Made by a program: the position numbers and the translations under genes. The notes beneath the pieces are model-generated. The model was not told the DNA's origin and did not search any database. It saw only the letters and a list, made by a program, of their open reading frames with translations. 64,000 nucleotides of DNA, from positions 5,704,001 through 5,768,000 of the forward strand of contig NC_064675.1 of assembly GCF_023278565.1 (NCBI RefSeq). The letters are read 5' to 3'. Of this stretch, positions 4,759-64,000 are shown one piece after another. Within the stretch, counting starts at the first letter, position 1; the number at the start of each line of letters is the position of its first letter. The DNA is from Colletotrichum lupini. Lineage: Eukaryota > Ascomycota > Sordariomycetes > Glomerellales > Glomerellaceae.

Positions 4759-5830
4759 CTACATCTTGAGGCGTGTGGAAGCCTGGTGCAACACGGCCAC
4801 TTGAGCCTCAAGCACCGCTATGACGAATTCCTCCGGTTTGCCTTGGCCGGCGCCGTAGATCATCCGCAGGTAGTCTTCCCGCTTCAAGTCCCGGGTGATG
4901 ACGGGACTGTAGCCCTGACGCGCCAGGTAATCCTGCTTAACCATGCGACTGGTACGCCCATTGCCATCGGGAAAGGGCTGAACGAGAACAAAGTAAGCCG
5001 TCATCTGACAAGCCAAAATCAGCGGGTGCAGCGCCTTCTCTCGATGCTGCAGGTCCCGATATTGGAAGAACCTCTCCATGCAAGCCGGGACCTCTTGCAG
5101 GTACGGAAAGGTTCGAAGACGATTGCTGCGTACGCTGATGGGTAGATTACGGTACTCTCTCAGCGGGACTTTCGATCCCCATACCAAGTTGCCGCCAGCC
5201 TTTTTCGAGTCTGTTCTCCAGGTGTCATAGGCCGACTCGGAGTCTGTATTGACGACGGACACCACGGCGAGGACTCGTACTTCAACTTCGCACAGTCCTG
5301 CTATACCAGCCTTGGCCGCCGCGTTCTTTGCGACCCATTGCGATGCGATGATGTGGTTCTGCAGCTCATGCGTGGCTGACTCGATGACGCCTGCGCCTCT
5401 TGGAGCAGTCCACGCCGTCACAAGTCTGGCAAGCTCGCTGCTGGGCGTGGAGGCAAGGCAAACTTGTTCAAGACCACCACGCAGGCTTTCGAAATTGCGG
5501 ATCGAGTCTTTCACTGAAAGAGGGTTGTTTTCAATCATTACGGACTGCTGGGCGCACTCGGCAACCAGGGTTTTCCCTAGGGCCCGTCACTGGCAGTCTG
5601 CCTCTGAGGTGATCGATTTCACTCAGCAGGCCCGTCAGTTTCCGCTGCACATCGACGTACCCCATCTTGAGGCTGTTGCCGGGCATAAAGTAATCTTCCC
5701 ATACCCGTTCGGAGCGCGCCAGCCTTTCGTACTCGATAGAGCCTTTCTGCAAGTGGGCGGCTGGTTTGAAAATCTTCTTGAGCAGGGCAAGACGCGCCTG
5801 CTGCGTGCTGGACAGAATCCGATTAGACAT
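4759..5830 (-). CDS. Fic-domain protein with catalytic His replaced by Gln
   Basis: Fic proteins usually transfer AMP or another phosphate-containing group to target hydroxyls, using an HPFx(D/E)GNGRxxR motif. Here the motif reads QPFPDGNGRTSR (spliced residues about 269-280). The first codon is CAG (4978-4980), so the catalytic base is missing while the phosphate-binding GNGR and final Arg remain. Two frames must be joined. The proposed exons are 5623-5830 and 4759-5576 with a 46-nt intron (5577-5622, GTGAAA donor, CTAG acceptor), giving 341 aa. The joined frame contains SVMIEN (residues 81-86), matching the (S/T)xxxE(G/N) inhibitory helix of class II Fic proteins, and this supports the join. 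The alternative is a frameshift between two fragments, or a start at the internal ATG at 5538. Activity is doubtful, so a pseudoenzyme or altered enzyme are both possible. The gene stands alone between long intergenic tracts. Confidence 0.75.
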
Positions 5831-58043: not shown

Positions 58044-58955
58044 CTATTCCTTCTTGTCGGTGGCCTCGTACTTGTCCTCGGGATAGGGTCCGAATTCGGT
58101 GGTCTGGCGCTTCTCCTTCTTGCCGTTACCCTCATACTTATCCTCCGGGTAGGGTCCGAACTCGGTGGTCTGGCGCTTGGAGTTCTTGCTCTCGTACTTA
58201 TCCTCCGGGTAGGGTCCGAACTCGGTGGTCTGGCGTCTAGAGTTTTTGGCTTCGTACTTGTCTTCAGGATAAGGTCCGAACTCGGTCGTTTGACGCTTGG
58301 AGTTGCTGCTCTCGTACTTATCCTCTGGATAAGGACCAAACTCGGTTGTCTGGCGCTTCTCCTTCATGTTGTTGCGCTCATACTTGTCCTCGGGATAGGG
58401 TCCGAATTCCGTAGTCTGACGCTTCTCCTTCATGCTGTTGCTGTCGTACTTGTCTTCGGGGTAGGGGCCAAACTCTGTGGTTTGACGCTTCTCCTTGATG
58501 CTGTTTCCCTCATACTTGTCCTCGGGATAGGGCCCAAACTCGGTGGTCTGTCGCTTCGAGCTCTTGCCCTGGTAACTGTCTTCAGGGTACGGGCCAAACT
58601 CTGTCGTCTGGCGTCTTTGGTTGTCCTTGCCCTGGTAGTTATCTTCAGGGTAAGGACCAAATTCTGTAGTCTGACGCTTTCCATTCTCCTGTCCCTGGTA
58701 GCTATCCTCGGGGTAGGGACCAAATTCGGTCGTCTGGCGCCTCTGGCTCGCCCTACCCTGGTAGCTGTCTTCAGGGTAAGGGCCGAACTCGGTAGTCTGG
58801 CGCTTGCTGTTCGCCTTGCCCTGATAACTGTCCTCGGGATAGGGACCGAACTCGGTGGTTTGGCGCTTCTCCGGAACGGCAAGCTTGGCACCCGGGGCGG
58901 CGGCGGCAAGGCTTGCAGCGAAGGCAAGGATGGCGGTGACCTTTGTCATATGCAT
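58044..58955 (-). CDS. Kex2-processed repeat protein (KEP): secreted precursor with 13 peptide units
   Basis: The 303-aa intronless product begins with a signal peptide (MHMTKVTAILAFAASLAAAA; Met3 is an alternative start). A short spacer ends in KR at residue 31. The rest consists of 13 tandem units, each opening with the invariant QTTEFGPYPED, then S, N or K, then invariant Tyr. A variable hydrophilic tail follows, ended by KR or RR. Kex2 in the Golgi would cut after each pair and release peptides of roughly 18-22 residues whose N-terminal Gln can cyclise to pyroglutamate. Units 1-5 continue with Y-Q-G; units 6-13 with K-Y-(E/D), and four of these (6, 7, 8 and 12) end KEKR. Such precursors give rise to fungal pheromones, hyphal surface peptides and ribosomal cyclic peptides (dikaritins). 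The core resembles none of those known to me. The gene is divergent from a prolyl-4-hydroxylase-like gene. Confidence 0.88.
   Translation of the reverse strand: MHMTKVTAILAFAASLAAAAPGAKLAVPEKRQTTEFGPYPEDSYQGKANSKRQTTEFGPYPEDSYQGRASQRRQTTEFGPYPEDSYQGQENGKRQTTEFGPYPEDNYQGKDNQRRQTTEFGPYPEDSYQGKSSKRQTTEFGPYPEDKYEGNSIKEKRQTTEFGPYPEDKYDSNSMKEKRQTTEFGPYPEDKYERNNMKEKRQTTEFGPYPEDKYESSNSKRQTTEFGPYPEDKYEAKNSRRQTTEFGPYPEDKYESKNSKRQTTEFGPYPEDKYEGNGKKEKRQTTEFGPYPEDKYEATDKKE
58047..58862 (-). repeat. 13-unit coding tandem repeat of the KEP precursor
   Basis: Each unit is 57-69 bases. The encoded 11-residue core is identical in all 13 units, while its codons differ at many synonymous positions; for example the segment for D-E-P-Y-P-G has at least five different spellings. 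Linkers between cores vary in both length and sequence. Confidence 0.95.
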
Positions 58956-59728
58956 GATGGCGTTTGGAGTTATGAGAGGAAGGATGAATTTTGCTTGAAG
59001 AAGGTTGCTAGAGGCAAGGTGAAGACTGAAGATTTTGAAGAAGCTTGGAAGACTGTGAAGGTGTTTGACTTGATGAGTGAGTGAAGAAACCTTTTGCTGT
59101 TTCCGGGATAGATTGCACCCTTAAATATCCATTTTTCTGTTCAGCTTCGCTGTCGACTCGGCTAACAACTCATCAGTGAAGTTGCCGCTTCGTTCAAGAT
59201 TCAGAGGCCACGCCATCGGTCCGACGGACACGGGTGCTTTCGTCACTCGATGCCCTGTCGTGAACTTCCTGTTCGTGATAGCGTCAACGCGTCCTCACTC
59301 TTGCTGTTCGTGATACTCCATACTTCCGAGTCCACAGAAGAACTACAGCTCGATCGTATGACTCGTTGATCCGTTCAACCTTTTCCAAAGATCGAAAGTC
59401 AACGCATCGCCGCCCGTCGACGAGAATAAGTCGAGATGATTGCGTCTCCCATCGGGAATTCCAAGTTGACAAAGTTTGAACTTCGGGGATCGAGATCATC
59501 ATGAATCCAACCTTTGAAAATCTCAGAGTTTTTCGTGGCTCAAGGAACAACTCTAGGCATGAAGCGTCAGTTTCTCTCAAGTCCCGTGGGAAGCCTCTCG
59601 ATCGGGCATATAAGGCGGATATCCGTCGGGCCCACGATGCTGGTCTTAGCGTTTGCGATTCCTGACCATAAACTTCTTCTCTAACCTCTTTCAGTCAATC
59701 CCGTTCTAACATTCCCCCTCTTTACACA
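58956..59728. promoter_or_regulatory. Shared divergent promoter of the KEP precursor and the prolyl hydroxylase
   Basis: The 773 bases separate the two start codons. A TATA-like box for the hydroxylase lies at 59609-59613 (CATATAAGG), about 115 bases before its ATG. A TATA-like TTAAATAT at 59121-59128 (read on the minus strand) lies about 170 bases before the KEP ATG. Two CCG-N-CGG words occur, CCGACGG at 59221-59227 and CCGTCGG at 59623-59629. They are compatible with a Zn2Cys6 regulator, but this is only suggestive. Confidence 0.55.
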
Positions 59729-60557
59729 ATGGCTCTCAAGCAATTCTTGTCCATGTCCTTCGCCGCGGCTATCCTAGCGGCACTCTTCTCCGCAAAGTCT
59801 CGGTCCCAGGAGGAGCCCCAGATCCCACTCGGCAACTCTTGCCCGCGCCCGCGCTATACAGTACGGACGTTGTCATATGATCCACTCATTCAGCACATTG
59901 AGAACTTTATCACCCCAGATGAGTCCCAATACCTGCTGCAGATTGCGTACGTCAGAGCTCCTCCATATTGCTGAAGATTCGGGGTTTACTTGCTGACTGA
60001 CTCGATACAGGCAGCCTAGGTTCCAGCGGTCTCGCGCCATCGGCACTGACGGGCGATCCATTGCTGCGCAGGAACGAACCAGTTCCACAGCGTACCTGTC
60101 TTCGGATGATTTTGTCGTCCAATGCATCAGATCCCGCGCTTCGGAGTTTCAGGGCTACGTAGACCTTGACATGATGGAGGATCTGCAAGTGACGCGGTAC
60201 TTGGAGGGGCAGCAGTACACGAATCACTATGACTGGGCAGCGAACCCCGCGGCGAGAAACCAGACGACAAACAGGGAAACAACCTTCTTCGCCGTTCTCG
60301 ATGTGGAGTGTGCCAGCTGCGGGACACGGTTCTCCAAGATCTCCGTGGACTGGGGTGTCGAGGATGAGCGGTGGTGCAACCTGGTCGACTGTGCGGCCCA
60401 GACAGAGCTGACAGTGCGAGCGGTCGCCGGTAGTGCCGTCTTCTGGCGGAATCTCCATTCCGATGGCACCGGAGATTCTCGAACGCTACATGCCGGCCTT
60501 CCGGCGGTAGGCGGCAAAAAGATCGGGTTGAATATCTGGACACGCCGGGAGGTTTAG
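59729..60557 (+). CDS. Secreted prolyl 4-hydroxylase-like 2OG-Fe(II) dioxygenase
   Basis: Enzymes of the P4Hc family hydroxylate proline in peptides in the ER lumen using 2-oxoglutarate, O2 and Fe(II). Exons 59729-59946 and 60011-60557 join over a 64-nt intron into 254 aa. An N-terminal signal or anchor segment (SMSFAAAILAALFSA) directs it to the secretory pathway. The catalytic triad is complete: HYD at about residues 145-147, the distal His at about 233 (TLHAGLP), and the 2OG-binding Lys at about 243 (GGKKIGLNIW). The family segment DERWCNLVDC, followed by AVAGSAVFW, lies between. The gene is intact and compact. It shares its promoter region with the KEP gene, whose repeated core contains G-P-Y-P, so the precursor is a natural candidate substrate. 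That link is inference. Confidence 0.88.
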
Positions 60558-61021
60558 TGTGCATGTGAGGGGGGGGACTATCTCCCCGGGATATTGGACG
60601 TTTCGAAACAGCGCACCAATCATCTTTCACCCTTTTGACTCCGCTTTGTCACACGTTCTGTTAGCCTTTAGACCTTGTTTGTCCTGGTTAATCGAGATCT
60701 ATTTACAAGGGCCACAAAGTCTACATGCTCAAATTCGTACTCCTCTCACATGGCACCTGCTAGTCAATGACACAAATGGAGCTCTCTCTAAAGGCTCCGG
60801 TAAAGGTTTACACTAGTGCTTTCTATATCACGGCCATCTACACGCGGAAGACGGCAGCTCCTTTTTAGACTTTTGGGCAGAAAGCCGGTGGCATGAACCA
60901 TGATGATATTCAGCGTATAGTTTGTAAAGGGCGGTATCCCATTGGGTACATCGGTAATAGCGGCTATTTTGGCTCGAATCATTGGACGTGGCCGCTAGAG
61001 CCAACTCTTACGGAGCCTAAA
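60558..61021. other. 3' flank of the hydroxylase gene; no gene supported
   Basis: Normal base composition with presumed 3' UTR. It ends at the candidate boundary of the degraded repeat. Confidence 0.5.
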
Positions 61022-61229
61022 TGTTGGTATACACGTAGGCAGGTCAGACCTTTTGGGTCGCGACTAGGTCAATAGGTTAGTATAGGTCTATTGCGTGTGT
61101 GTATATAGGAGGGGAAGATCGTGGGCAGAGCCCGCGGTCCCTTAGTAGGTATAGGTAGGTAGAAAGGTCCGTTTGCACGGGCCTAGACTACTTACCTACT
61201 ACCCCTACCTAACTACTTAATAGGGCCCC
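61022..61229. repeat. Candidate edge of the degraded repeat, with an inverted repeat
   Basis: The segment begins TGTTGG, a common start of retroelement LTRs, and contains a TATATAGG box near 61101. It also carries an imperfect inverted repeat: TAGTAGGTATAGGTAGGTAG at 61124-61143 and a rough complement near 61188-61215. CpA and TpG are still present here, unlike in the adjacent block. Whether this is a true LTR cannot be decided because the other end is outside the window. Confidence 0.35.
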
Positions 61230-64000
61230 TTTTTTACCTCGTAATTTAATATTAGTAGTTTTTTATTTTTATAATAAAAAAGGCTAGAATAGGGGCTAGG
61301 TCCCCTGCTAGTGAGAATTAGTAATAGAATTTATAATTAATCCCCTATTTAGAAGTGCCTAAAGCCGTATACTAAAATTTTAATATAGCTTCTATTATGA
61401 TTATTTATATAGAAATTTTAGTATCCCCTCTTTCTAATTACTTCCTAATCCTCTAATATATATAATTTATATACCTAAACTCTTTAAAAATCGTCGAATT
61501 TAATATAATTAAAAAAGAGCTTTTTATTAGTTTAACTACGCCCTAAATACGTACGTTTCTCTCTAAGCTAAAGCCCGAGAGGTATATACGTTTACTAAAC
61601 GACTTATTACCTATAGTATATTACTATTTTAATTACGTATTACCTATCCTTTTATTTTAATTATAATAATTCTTTTATTAACGAATCGTTTAAGGGACTT
61701 ATTTAGTATGCTCTTTATAAACCCGTTAGCTAGGTTATTATTATTACTAATTTAATAAATTTCGTAGAGCTCGCGGCGTTTATATAATTACCTAAGTACT
61801 ATAATATCTATTATAAGGCGCTTTTCTTTTATAATACTTAGTTTAATAAGGTATTTATATAATAAGTATAAATTTATATAGATTATAGTAGGGATTTTTA
61901 AAACGTCAAGTTATTTAATAATAAGGTCTAGGGTAATTAAAATAGTATAAGTAACGTTAATACCTATAACTATTTTATAAACCTTTAATACTAGCACGCT
62001 CTAAGTAATCCTTTTATTTTTTATAAAGTTATAATAAATAATATTATTATTAATTATAAAGCTCTTGTTAGTCTATTCTTTATTTATAAGGATAATAATA
62101 TAACCTAGTTATGAGGTATAATTAGCGTTATTTATAAATAACTTATTTATAAAAACGAAGAATTTAGTTATAATTAGATTTAATAATACGAATATAAGCC
62201 CTCGGTTTAAGTAATTTATTTACTATTTAATACGACGGTTTAGCGCAACGTAATTAATAAATAATAGATCTACTTAGTATTAAGTAATAAATAACGTATT
62301 AAAAGCTACTTTTAATTAGTAAATTAATATAATATAAGTACCTCGAGCTCGCTACTTAACAAATTATTATTTAATATCTAATACCGAGGGGTTAACTTAC
62401 TTAAGCTTCTTTTTTTAATTCTTCTATCTAAGTACTATATTAATACTTTTTAATAAAATAATCCCGCTATTAAAAATAAGCGGCTCGTTAGCTAATAGTT
62501 ATTACTTTAGTTTAGTTAGTAGCTTAGCGCGCTTAAGCTTAGTTTCTTTTTTCTAACTAAAAGTCTTATTTAATAATCTAATAGTATTATCGGTTTATAT
62601 ATTAATAATACTAAATAATCCGCTTTCTTTTATTAAGACTAGTAAATATAAATTAAACGTAAATATTATTATTTAAAGTATTTTTAAATAATACTTATTA
62701 TATATTACCTATTAATAGGTACTAGATTTTATAAAACTGTATAGTAATTATATAACGTATAAAATAATACCCTTAGGGTATAAATAACGGATCCGAGCTA
62801 GTAATTAAATAAAAACCTTATAATAAAGAGGTTAGCTCGATTATATATATACTTAAGTAATATCTCGTAACTAAATAACGTAGCCTTTTTAAATTAAGGT
62901 CGGGGCTAGGGCGAGGATTAGACGTTAACTAGTTTTTTAAATTATTAATAATTATATAAAGATCTCTTTTTTCCCCTCGTTATTATACCCTTATATAACT
63001 AAATAAGATTTTTTAATAAGGTTAAGTTTTAAGTTCTTAATCTCGTTAATAAACTAAAACTTAAATATTCTTATATCCCTATATTTAGGGCTAAGTTAAA
63101 TAAATTTAATTACCCCTCTTTTTATTAATTTTAAAAGCTCTTTATTAGTAAATTCTATAAAAAGTACTCTTAGGGTAATAATAATACCCTTATTATAGAG
63201 CTTAGTAACTAGCTTAAGATTTACTTTTTTTTTAAATATAAAATAAGTCGTAGTTATAAAAGTATTACTATAGCCGCGCCGTATTAATATTTTTCTAATC
63301 CTCTTATTTTATAATAAAAAGTCGTTATTAATTACGATAATAATTTTATTAAAGACTTTATTTATAGCGGCGCTATTATTAGTTAGCTAGTTAATTATGG
63401 GGATTAATAAGCGGTTAACGTGCTCTATTATCGTAGTTAGTAGCTCGGGGTCGACCTTTTCTAAGTACTAGGGTTTAACTATAGTAGCCCAGAAGCTTAT
63501 TAAGCTATAAAGTAATTCTATTACGTAAGTAGTACTATTTATTAAAACGAGCTTAAATAGGCCTTTCTATCCCTTACCTTCTTACTAAACTTTAATATCT
63601 AATTATAATAATAGATTAATAGTATAAGAGATATTTAATCCGTTTTAAATAGCTAGTACTTCGCTTACTTACTTATTAATATAAAGTCTACGAACTTCCT
63701 TTATTACTTTCTTAACTACCTCTATATATTAAGTAATATTTAATAATAGTAGAGATTTATTAGAAGTGCGTAAAAAAGCTTTAAAAACGAGGAATATAAG
63801 AACGAGGCCGTTTAGGCTAATTATATTATTAACTACTTTAATTACGGCCTAAAGTATAGCCTCCGCGCTTATTAATAAGTATTTATTTTAAATAATATTA
63901 TATACCCTTTTAAGTACTATATAATATCTCTTAGCCTTACTAATACTATTATAAGCTTCGATAGGTACTTCCTTAACTTTAATAAATATAAATCTAATAA
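61230..64000. mobile_element. AT-rich, RIP-degraded repeat relic, continues past the window
   Basis: From about 61230 to the end the sequence is dominated by A and T with very frequent TpA. CpA and TpG are nearly absent while CpG and CpC persist; for instance 62521-62580 and 62881-62940 contain none of the two. No open frame of meaningful length survives. This is the signature of repeat-induced point mutation acting at CpA in a multicopy transposon. The type of element was not established. The block ends the gene-bearing region next to the KEP/hydroxylase pair. Confidence 0.85.

What the first reader, a model, noticed from the sequence alone, without database searches (positions are those of the whole stretch)
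58044..60557. Divergent pair: 13-unit Kex2 peptide precursor plus secreted prolyl 4-hydroxylase, a candidate modified-peptide system
Seen: a precursor with 13 invariant QTTEFGPYPED-x-Y cores between dibasic sites, and an intact P4H-like dioxygenase with signal segment and complete HxD...H...K triad, divergent across 773 bp. Established: Kex2-processed repeat proteins yield secreted fungal peptides, and P4Hc enzymes hydroxylate peptidyl proline in the ER, before Golgi Kex2 cleavage. Inference: the two prolines of each core (26 per precursor) are hydroxylated and the peptides are secreted. No DUF3328/UstYa oxidase is nearby, so this differs from the known dikaritin logic.
Basis: partly seen in the sequence, partly recalled or inferred. 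Interest (0 to 1): 0.9.

Follow-up and report, generated by a model that had tools for sequence, protein, structure and literature searches.

The report
Broken fungal peptide-modification cluster with prolyl hydroxylase
A fungus of a plant-pathogen genus carries a gene for a protein that is probably cut into thirteen near-identical peptides, next to an enzyme that probably hydroxylates them, and a third gene that would probably have cyclised them lies just beyond, apparently torn apart by transposons.

Summary
In detail: a 303-aa precursor with 13 of 13 identical QTTEFGPYPED-x-Y cores behind KR or RR, whose core codons differ only synonymously, divergent from an intact one-intron prolyl 4-hydroxylase-like gene.
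The claim 'no UstYa nearby, so not dikaritin logic' fails. A UstYa (DUF3328) gene starts 7.7 kb right of the hydroxylase; it is cut in two by about 16.3 kb of AT-rich, RIP-like DNA and has premature stops. A UstYb-like fragment follows. In Colletotrichum chlorophyti one gene model fuses the same hydroxylase and UstYa; in C. limetticola, C. tabaci and Rutstroemia both appear on one contig.
The hydroxylase thus most likely belongs to a Kex2-repeat/UstYa peptide (RiPP) cluster, shared across genera and broken here. Proline hydroxylation is inferred. No precursor homologue was found elsewhere, so conserved precursor-hydroxylase pairing is untested.
New variant of a known kind: a prolyl hydroxylase in a UstYa cluster did not appear in what I saw of my paper searches.

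The parts
58044..58955 (-). Kex2-processed repeat protein (KEP) precursor, 303 aa, one exon: hydrophobic N-terminus plus 13 units K/R-R-QTTEFGPYPED-x-Y-spacer
   Evidence: one match in the own genome
58068..58862 (-). Span of the 13 invariant QTTEFGPYPED-x-Y cores (first core 58824-58862, last 58068-58106)
   Evidence: one search lists each core; codon analysis
58956..59728 (.). 773-bp intergenic region between the two start codons; holds two exact copies of CTGTTCGTGATA (59269-59280, 59304-59315)
   Evidence: 2 matches in the window, 0.19 expected
59729..60557 (+). Prolyl 4-hydroxylase-like 2OG-Fe(II) dioxygenase, 254 aa; exons 59729-59946 and 60011-60557, intron 59947-60010; H145/D147/H233 and K243
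60990..64000 (.). Left end of an AT-rich, RIP-like block that runs to about window-frame 108 kb. It opens with an LTR-like direct repeat (61024-61245; partner at window-frame 67718-67939, 88% identical, 26 transitions, 0 transversions). Outside the window: UstYa 5' part at C2:5772270-5772701(+), 3' part at C2:5788966-5789413(+), UstYb-like fragment at C2:5789801-5790148(-)

Best explanation
This is the surviving left half of a RiPP (ribosomal, modified peptide) cluster of the KEP/UstYa (dikaritin-like) kind whose order was precursor(-) / prolyl 4-hydroxylase(+) / UstYa oxidase(+) / UstYb-like(-). In the working form the precursor enters the ER. The hydroxylase would hydroxylate one or both prolines of each FGPYPED core. 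UstYa, with or without the UstYb-like protein, would cross-link the core through a tyrosine. Kex2 would cut after KR/RR and carboxypeptidase trimming would release the peptides, with the N-terminal Gln able to close to pyroglutamate. In this genome LTR-like, RIP-mutated insertions separate the hydroxylase from UstYa and cut UstYa in two. Precursor and hydroxylase are intact, so at most a linear, possibly hydroxyproline-bearing peptide is expected. Shown: gene anatomy, selection on the core, the split oxidase, hydroxylase-UstYa linkage in other fungi. Inferred: that the three act on one substrate, the sites modified, the subcellular order and secretion.
For: 13 of 13 cores identical with near-saturated synonymous change. 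Hydroxylase intact; nearest solved relatives by profile are prolyl 4-hydroxylase chains (2jij, E 1.2e-27; that they are from Chlamydomonas is recalled); AF2 mean pLDDT 86.9. With the intact C. limetticola UstYa P0124 as query, the own genome gives residues 1-87 (95% identity) and 86-128 (88%) at C2:5772270-5772701, and 128-175 (73%) and 149-258 (89%) at C2:5788966-5789413, in order and on the hydroxylase strand; the other 5 of 9 matches are 43% identical or less. C. chlorophyti P0012 is one gene model holding this hydroxylase and this UstYa. Hydroxylase and UstYa clusters name the same species and contig length for C. limetticola (112,508 bp), C. tabaci (855,242) and Rutstroemia (2,405,129). 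Of 7878 KEP genes in a published survey 1758 have DUF3328 genes near, at a mean distance of 3.09 genes (PMC7329392 passages).
Against: No precursor homologue scored among 7301 word-sharing candidates (length limits of the tool: about 167-530 aa), although a local test shows the scoring would detect one; so precursor-hydroxylase pairing rests on one genome. No tyrosinase match lies within 700 kb and no S41 peptidase match near. In this genome alone a UstYa this close to some P4H is not very unlikely: 0.10 pairs expected for the six PF13640 places, 0.017 for this P4H; one search adds two more P4H-like places, so the first figure is slightly low. Same contig is not the same as adjacent for the two large contigs, and the C. 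tabaci UstYa model is itself fused to a transposase. The identity of the UstYb-like fragment is only moderately supported. No expression or mass data.
Confidence: 0.6

Rival explanations
1. One reading: a UstY-independent two-gene system, in which the hydroxylase alone decorates linear peptides and the UstYa next door was never part of it.
For: Only precursor and hydroxylase are intact here. They share one 773-bp intergenic region.
Against: The same UstYa orthologue is fused to, or on the same contig as, the same hydroxylase in four other species. Named members of both groups come from Colletotrichum, Botrytis/Botryotinia and Rutstroemia; Diaporthe was seen for the hydroxylase only.
Confidence: 0.17
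2. The precursor is a linear signalling or mating-type peptide and the P4H/UstYa pair beside it serves another substrate.
For: No precursor homologue was found to show linkage. KEPs include alpha-pheromones (PMC7329392 passages; PMC6339444 abstract).
Against: The recalled alpha-pheromone core WCxxxGQPCW is absent from the cores. In the published survey 98.6% of 216 putative pheromone KEPs had no DUF3328 gene near (PMC7329392 passages). However, no exact pheromone motif was found elsewhere in this genome; with 2 mismatches there were 9 matches against 4 for the reversed control, and only the best was examined and was not a repeat precursor. So this test is weak.
Confidence: 0.1
3. The whole locus is decaying: with UstYa lost, precursor and hydroxylase are no longer under selection or expressed.
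For: UstYa is split, carries stops and an altered HxxHC motif; the UstYb-like gene is truncated. RIP-like DNA starts within about 0.5 kb behind the hydroxylase.
Against: Both reading frames are intact. The hydroxylase is 99% identical to C. limetticola and has the catalytic residues. All 13 cores are intact.
Confidence: 0.13

Closest known systems
Dikaritins (ustiloxin, phomopsin, asperipin-2a; KEP + DUF3328/UstYa)
   Same: Multi-copy precursor with dibasic-flanked, Tyr-containing cores; linked UstYa with two HxxHC motifs in the orthologues; in C. chlorophyti in one gene model with the hydroxylase
   Different: Core is not Y-x-I-x; no tyrosinase or S41 peptidase near; a prolyl 4-hydroxylase-like enzyme is a linked member; UstYa is broken in this genome
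Kex2-processed repeat proteins (KEPs) without UstYa
   Same: Precursor layout, Kex2 sites, N-terminal Gln (pyroGlu reported for mushroom KEP peptides in PMC9769878, passages)
   Different: UstYa is present but interrupted; hydroxylase neighbour
Peptidyl prolyl 4-hydroxylases (algal P4H, collagen P4H)
   Same: Profile match, HxD...H and K, hydrophobic N-terminus
   Different: Fungal family with conserved cysteines (C173, C176, C200 invariant in 28 of 28, C195 in at least 90%); substrate untested

Membership tests
KEP (Kex2-processed repeat protein) | N-terminal secretion signal | tested here: inconclusive
   Hydrophobic, Ala-rich N-terminus (Kyte-Doolittle only; no signal-peptide predictor)
KEP (Kex2-processed repeat protein) | Repeats separated by dibasic Kex2 sites | tested here: met
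   13 of 13 cores preceded by KR or RR
Dikaritin | DUF3328/UstYa enzyme with two HxxHC motifs in the cluster (class-defining per PMC12048977, passages) | tested here: inconclusive
   Orthologues have both motifs (HQIHC or HQMHC, and HKAHC); in this genome the gene is present but interrupted and its first motif altered
Dikaritin | Repeat precursor with Tyr-containing cores near the UstYa gene | tested here: met
   Two Tyr per unit; precursor, hydroxylase and UstYa remnants in one row
Dikaritin | Tyr-linked macrocycle in the product | not testable with these tools
   Needs mass spectrometry
Ustiloxin/phomopsin-type dikaritin | Tyrosinase in the cluster | tested here: not met
   0 of 40 PF00264 matches within 700 kb of the locus
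Ustiloxin/phomopsin-type dikaritin | S41 peptidase in the cluster | tested here: not met
   0 of 3 PF03572 matches near the locus
Ustiloxin/phomopsin-type dikaritin | Y-x-I-x core | tested here: not met
   Core is QTTEFGPYPED-x-Y
Peptidyl prolyl 4-hydroxylase | 2OG-Fe(II) oxygenase family with HxD...H and 2OG-binding Lys | tested here: met
   PF13640 above cut-off, residues conserved, profile match to 2jij/2v4a/3gze
Peptidyl prolyl 4-hydroxylase | Hydroxylates peptidyl proline | not testable with these tools
   Needs an enzyme assay
Ascomycete alpha-pheromone precursor | WCxxxGQPCW-like core (recalled) | tested here: not met
   Core lacks Trp and Cys

The most novel reading that the evidence does not exclude
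A hydroxyproline branch of fungal RiPPs: a dedicated secretory prolyl 4-hydroxylase works with UstYa on a 13-copy precursor, giving cyclic hydroxylated peptides in relatives. In this lineage transposon loss of the oxidase has turned the output into linear hydroxyproline peptides, with a G-Hyp-x-P layout that (recalled, untested) recalls plant CLE hormones.
Probability: 0.33. Interest if true: 0.8.

Novelty: new variant of a known kind. Interest (0 to 1): 0.56.

Why it matters
If true, it adds peptidyl proline hydroxylation to the tailoring chemistry of fungal UstYa peptides and gives a family of clusters in Colletotrichum, Botrytis and Rutstroemia to test. The broken copy and a close relative with an intact UstYa frame (C. 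limetticola) form a natural with/without comparison for what UstYa does and for what remains when it is lost. It also shows that a window edge and an AT-rich block can hide the class-defining gene.

Tried and rejected
Whole-precursor protein search: 7301 candidates, 0 hits. A local phmmer test (the precursor itself and three made-up core-bearing decoys, all found) showed the scoring would accept a repeat homologue, so homologues within the tool's length limits are absent or unannotated; shorter ones were not searched because the last protein search went to UstYa. Rejected: 'the UstYa is a chance neighbour' as the main reading, because of the C. chlorophyti fusion and shared contigs. Rejected: reading the hydroxylase's P-to-S difference from C. 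limetticola as damage, since other family members have Ser there. The promoter motif CTGTTCGTGATA was not found in L038, the 10-kb stretch holding the UstYa 5' part. A profile comparison of the UstYb-like fragment with UstYa was not convincing (probability 3%), and Pfam gives no UstYa hit for it. Its identity rests on 37% identity to a UstY-like protein on C4 and 33% to one beside another KEP on C5, and on two HxxHC-like motifs; Pfam scores neither of these two relatives above its UstYa cut-off. Alpha-pheromone pattern: no exact match, best near match not a repeat protein. Pfam gave the precursor one sub-threshold, repeat-driven hit (PF08883), taken as spurious.

Papers: at least 3 of prolyl 4-hydroxylase / ribosomally synthesized / fungal / Kex2 gave 17 papers, of which two hold 'prolyl 4-hydroxylase', neither on fungal clusters by title. 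UstYa with 'prolyl 4-hydroxylase' gave 0. DUF3328 with 2OG-Fe and cluster gave 0. UstYa with oxoglutarate gave 7: one opened at its passages and unrelated, six judged by title only. The core letters gave 0. Dikaritin with hydroxyproline gave 3, 2 listed; passages of both were seen and neither reports a hydroxyproline dikaritin there. Word counts for 'hydroxylase' or 'hydroxyl' in KEP and RiPP papers I opened are 0 in PMC7329392, PMC6339444, PMC6941272, PMC9233826 and PMC12048977; PMC9769878 has one 'hydroxyl' passage, on mass-search settings. B. cinerea locus tags around the hydroxylase gave 0 papers. Supplementary tables were not readable, so a listing of this precursor in earlier KEP surveys cannot be excluded.

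Full report
What is there. The window is C2:5704001-5768000 of a 63.4-Mb, 12-contig genome. The hydroxylase is 99% identical to a Colletotrichum limetticola protein, so this is very probably a Colletotrichum of the acutatum complex. The size agrees with the upper end reported for C. lupini (54.5-63.4 Mb, PMC11645255, passages); naming it C. lupini is inference.

The precursor (58044-58955, minus, 303 aa) has 13 units of K/R-R-QTTEFGPYPED-x-Y plus a variable spacer. The 11 core codons carry 485 synonymous and 0 non-synonymous differences summed over 78 pairs of copies, while the two variable positions beside Y differ about equally at both kinds of site. Recent copying would leave the codons alike; here the codons have drifted to near saturation while the residues have not. 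So selection holds each copy, which is what a precursor of many identical peptides predicts. A search of the own genome finds this one place only.

The hydroxylase (59729-60557, plus, one 64-bp intron, 254 aa) passes the PF13640 cut-off. It has the metal triad and the 2OG lysine, and conserved cysteines that would suit the secretory path (28 sequences aligned, 27 of the 120 listed plus the query). A profile of the alignment finds prolyl 4-hydroxylase chains first among solved structures (2jij, 2v4a, 2jig, 3gze). Its AF2 model is mostly confident; the N-terminal 40 residues and residues 81-90 are the weak parts. Two distant relatives on C2 and C1 are 39% and 45% identical over the matched part, and two more P4H-like places score weaker.

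A genome-wide scan for UstYa (PF11807) gives 32 matches (31 over the cut-off) in about 21 places; one lies 25 kb right of the hydroxylase. Reading that side shows an AT-rich block from window-frame 61 kb to 108 kb with RIP-like dinucleotide ratios and two GC-rich islands. The first island holds the 5' part of a UstYa gene, the second its 3' part. With the intact C. limetticola protein P0124 as query, the pieces match residues 1-128 at C2:5772270-5772701 and 128-258 at C2:5788966-5789413: the same gene, cut at one point by about 16.3 kb of foreign DNA, with stops in the flanking exons and one altered HxxHC motif. No other match in the genome exceeds 43% identity. The insert is bounded by direct repeats of 189 bp (86% identical; 26 transitions, 0 transversions). 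A further block between hydroxylase and UstYa is bounded by another pair of 222 bp (88%; 26 transitions, 0 transversions). Both look like LTR elements altered by RIP. Behind UstYa, on the minus strand, is a 116-aa fragment with two HxxHC-like motifs. Its relatives in this genome are a 299-aa protein on C4 (37% identical) and a protein on C5 (33%) that stands in a row of four UstY-like frames beside another repeat precursor. Pfam does not score the fragment. Of the four C5 frames, two reach only sub-threshold UstYa scores and two none. A profile comparison of the fragment with UstYa was not convincing. I therefore call it UstYb-like with moderate confidence.

Linkage elsewhere. The hydroxylase search listed 120 of 141 proteins. 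A tight group stands at the top (13 clusters, P0001-P0013; 76-99% identical, except the chimera P0012 at 64%), after which identity drops to 57% or less. Its named members are Colletotrichum, Botrytis/Botryotinia, Rutstroemia and Diaporthe; two are unnamed. The UstYa search returned 11 clusters in all, from Colletotrichum, Botrytis/Botryotinia and Rutstroemia. P0012 of C. chlorophyti is a single gene model whose first part is this hydroxylase and whose last part is this UstYa; both pieces of our broken gene match it. The other clusters list only their longest contig and say nothing either way. In this genome alone the closeness would be weak evidence (0.10 pairs expected within 26 kb over the six PF13640 places); the other species carry the argument.

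How it most likely works. KEP precursors enter the secretory path and Kex2 cuts at dibasic sites; DUF3328 proteins cyclise cores through Tyr (PMC7329392, PMC9233826, PMC9769878 and PMC12048977, passages). Placing the hydroxylase in the ER, acting before Kex2, follows from its hydrophobic N-terminus and from the known biology of P4H enzymes (recalled). That it acts on GPYP prolines is inference from adjacency, a shared intergenic region and the enzyme family. In this genome the oxidase step should be missing, so a linear peptide, hydroxylated or not, is the expected product, if the locus is still expressed.

Against my reading. No precursor homologue was found. The survey of agaric KEP peptides tested hydroxylation as a variable modification (passage), but I did not read whether any was found, and it concerns other fungi. 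Tyrosinase and S41 peptidase, typical of ustiloxin and phomopsin clusters (PMC6941272, passages), are not near; the asperipin-2a cluster has a single UstY gene and no peptidase according to PMC12048977 (passages).

Known or new. KEPs, UstYa clusters and fungal P4H proteins are each known. I found no paper joining a prolyl 4-hydroxylase to a UstYa/KEP cluster (searches; passages), within an open-access library and without supplements. In plants, hydroxyproline of linear peptides is predicted to come from a prolyl 4-hydroxylase, though no responsible enzyme had been shown (PMC11253845, passage), so the chemistry itself has a parallel. I file it as a new variant of a known kind.

Noticed in passing
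L053:1034-6649 (C5:1945034-1950649): A second repeat precursor (L053:6302-6649, P0131, repeat KAGIVPVKEEDIISLGDR) stands beside four UstY-like frames with two HxxHC-like motifs each, none above the Pfam UstYa cut-off, with PF11807 matches on either side: an apparently intact dikaritin-like cluster.
   Followed up: partly
L050:2661-4028 and L051:8490-9248 (C2:5813661-5815028 and C2:5829490-5830248): An AMP-binding enzyme seems to be split in a similar way: profile positions 18-309 on one side and 338-384 (below the cut-off) on the other, with about 14 kb of AT-rich DNA between.
   Followed up: no
P0126 (C. tabaci): The orthologous UstYa is annotated as one gene with a DDE transposase and lacks its first exon, so a transposon seems to sit beside it in another species too.
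   Followed up: no
P0127, P0128, P0129, P0130: Four UstYa gene models (C. godetiae twice, C. sublineola, B. cinerea) skip the same stretch of about 41 residues, corresponding to the second exon here: alternative splicing or a shared annotation error.
   Followed up: no
window 59269-59280 and 59304-59315: Two exact copies of CTGTTCGTGATA between the two start codons, the only matches in the window at up to 1 mismatch (0.19 expected); possible regulator site.
   Followed up: partly
window-frame 75.6-100 kb (C2:5779.6-5804.1 kb): Long repeats in direct and inverted order within the AT-rich block (up to 5.2 kb, 87% identical): probably nested RIP-altered transposons.
   Followed up: no
window 4762-5538 (-): Fic/DOC family protein (PF02661, E 1.5e-9) in the left part of the window.
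   Followed up: no
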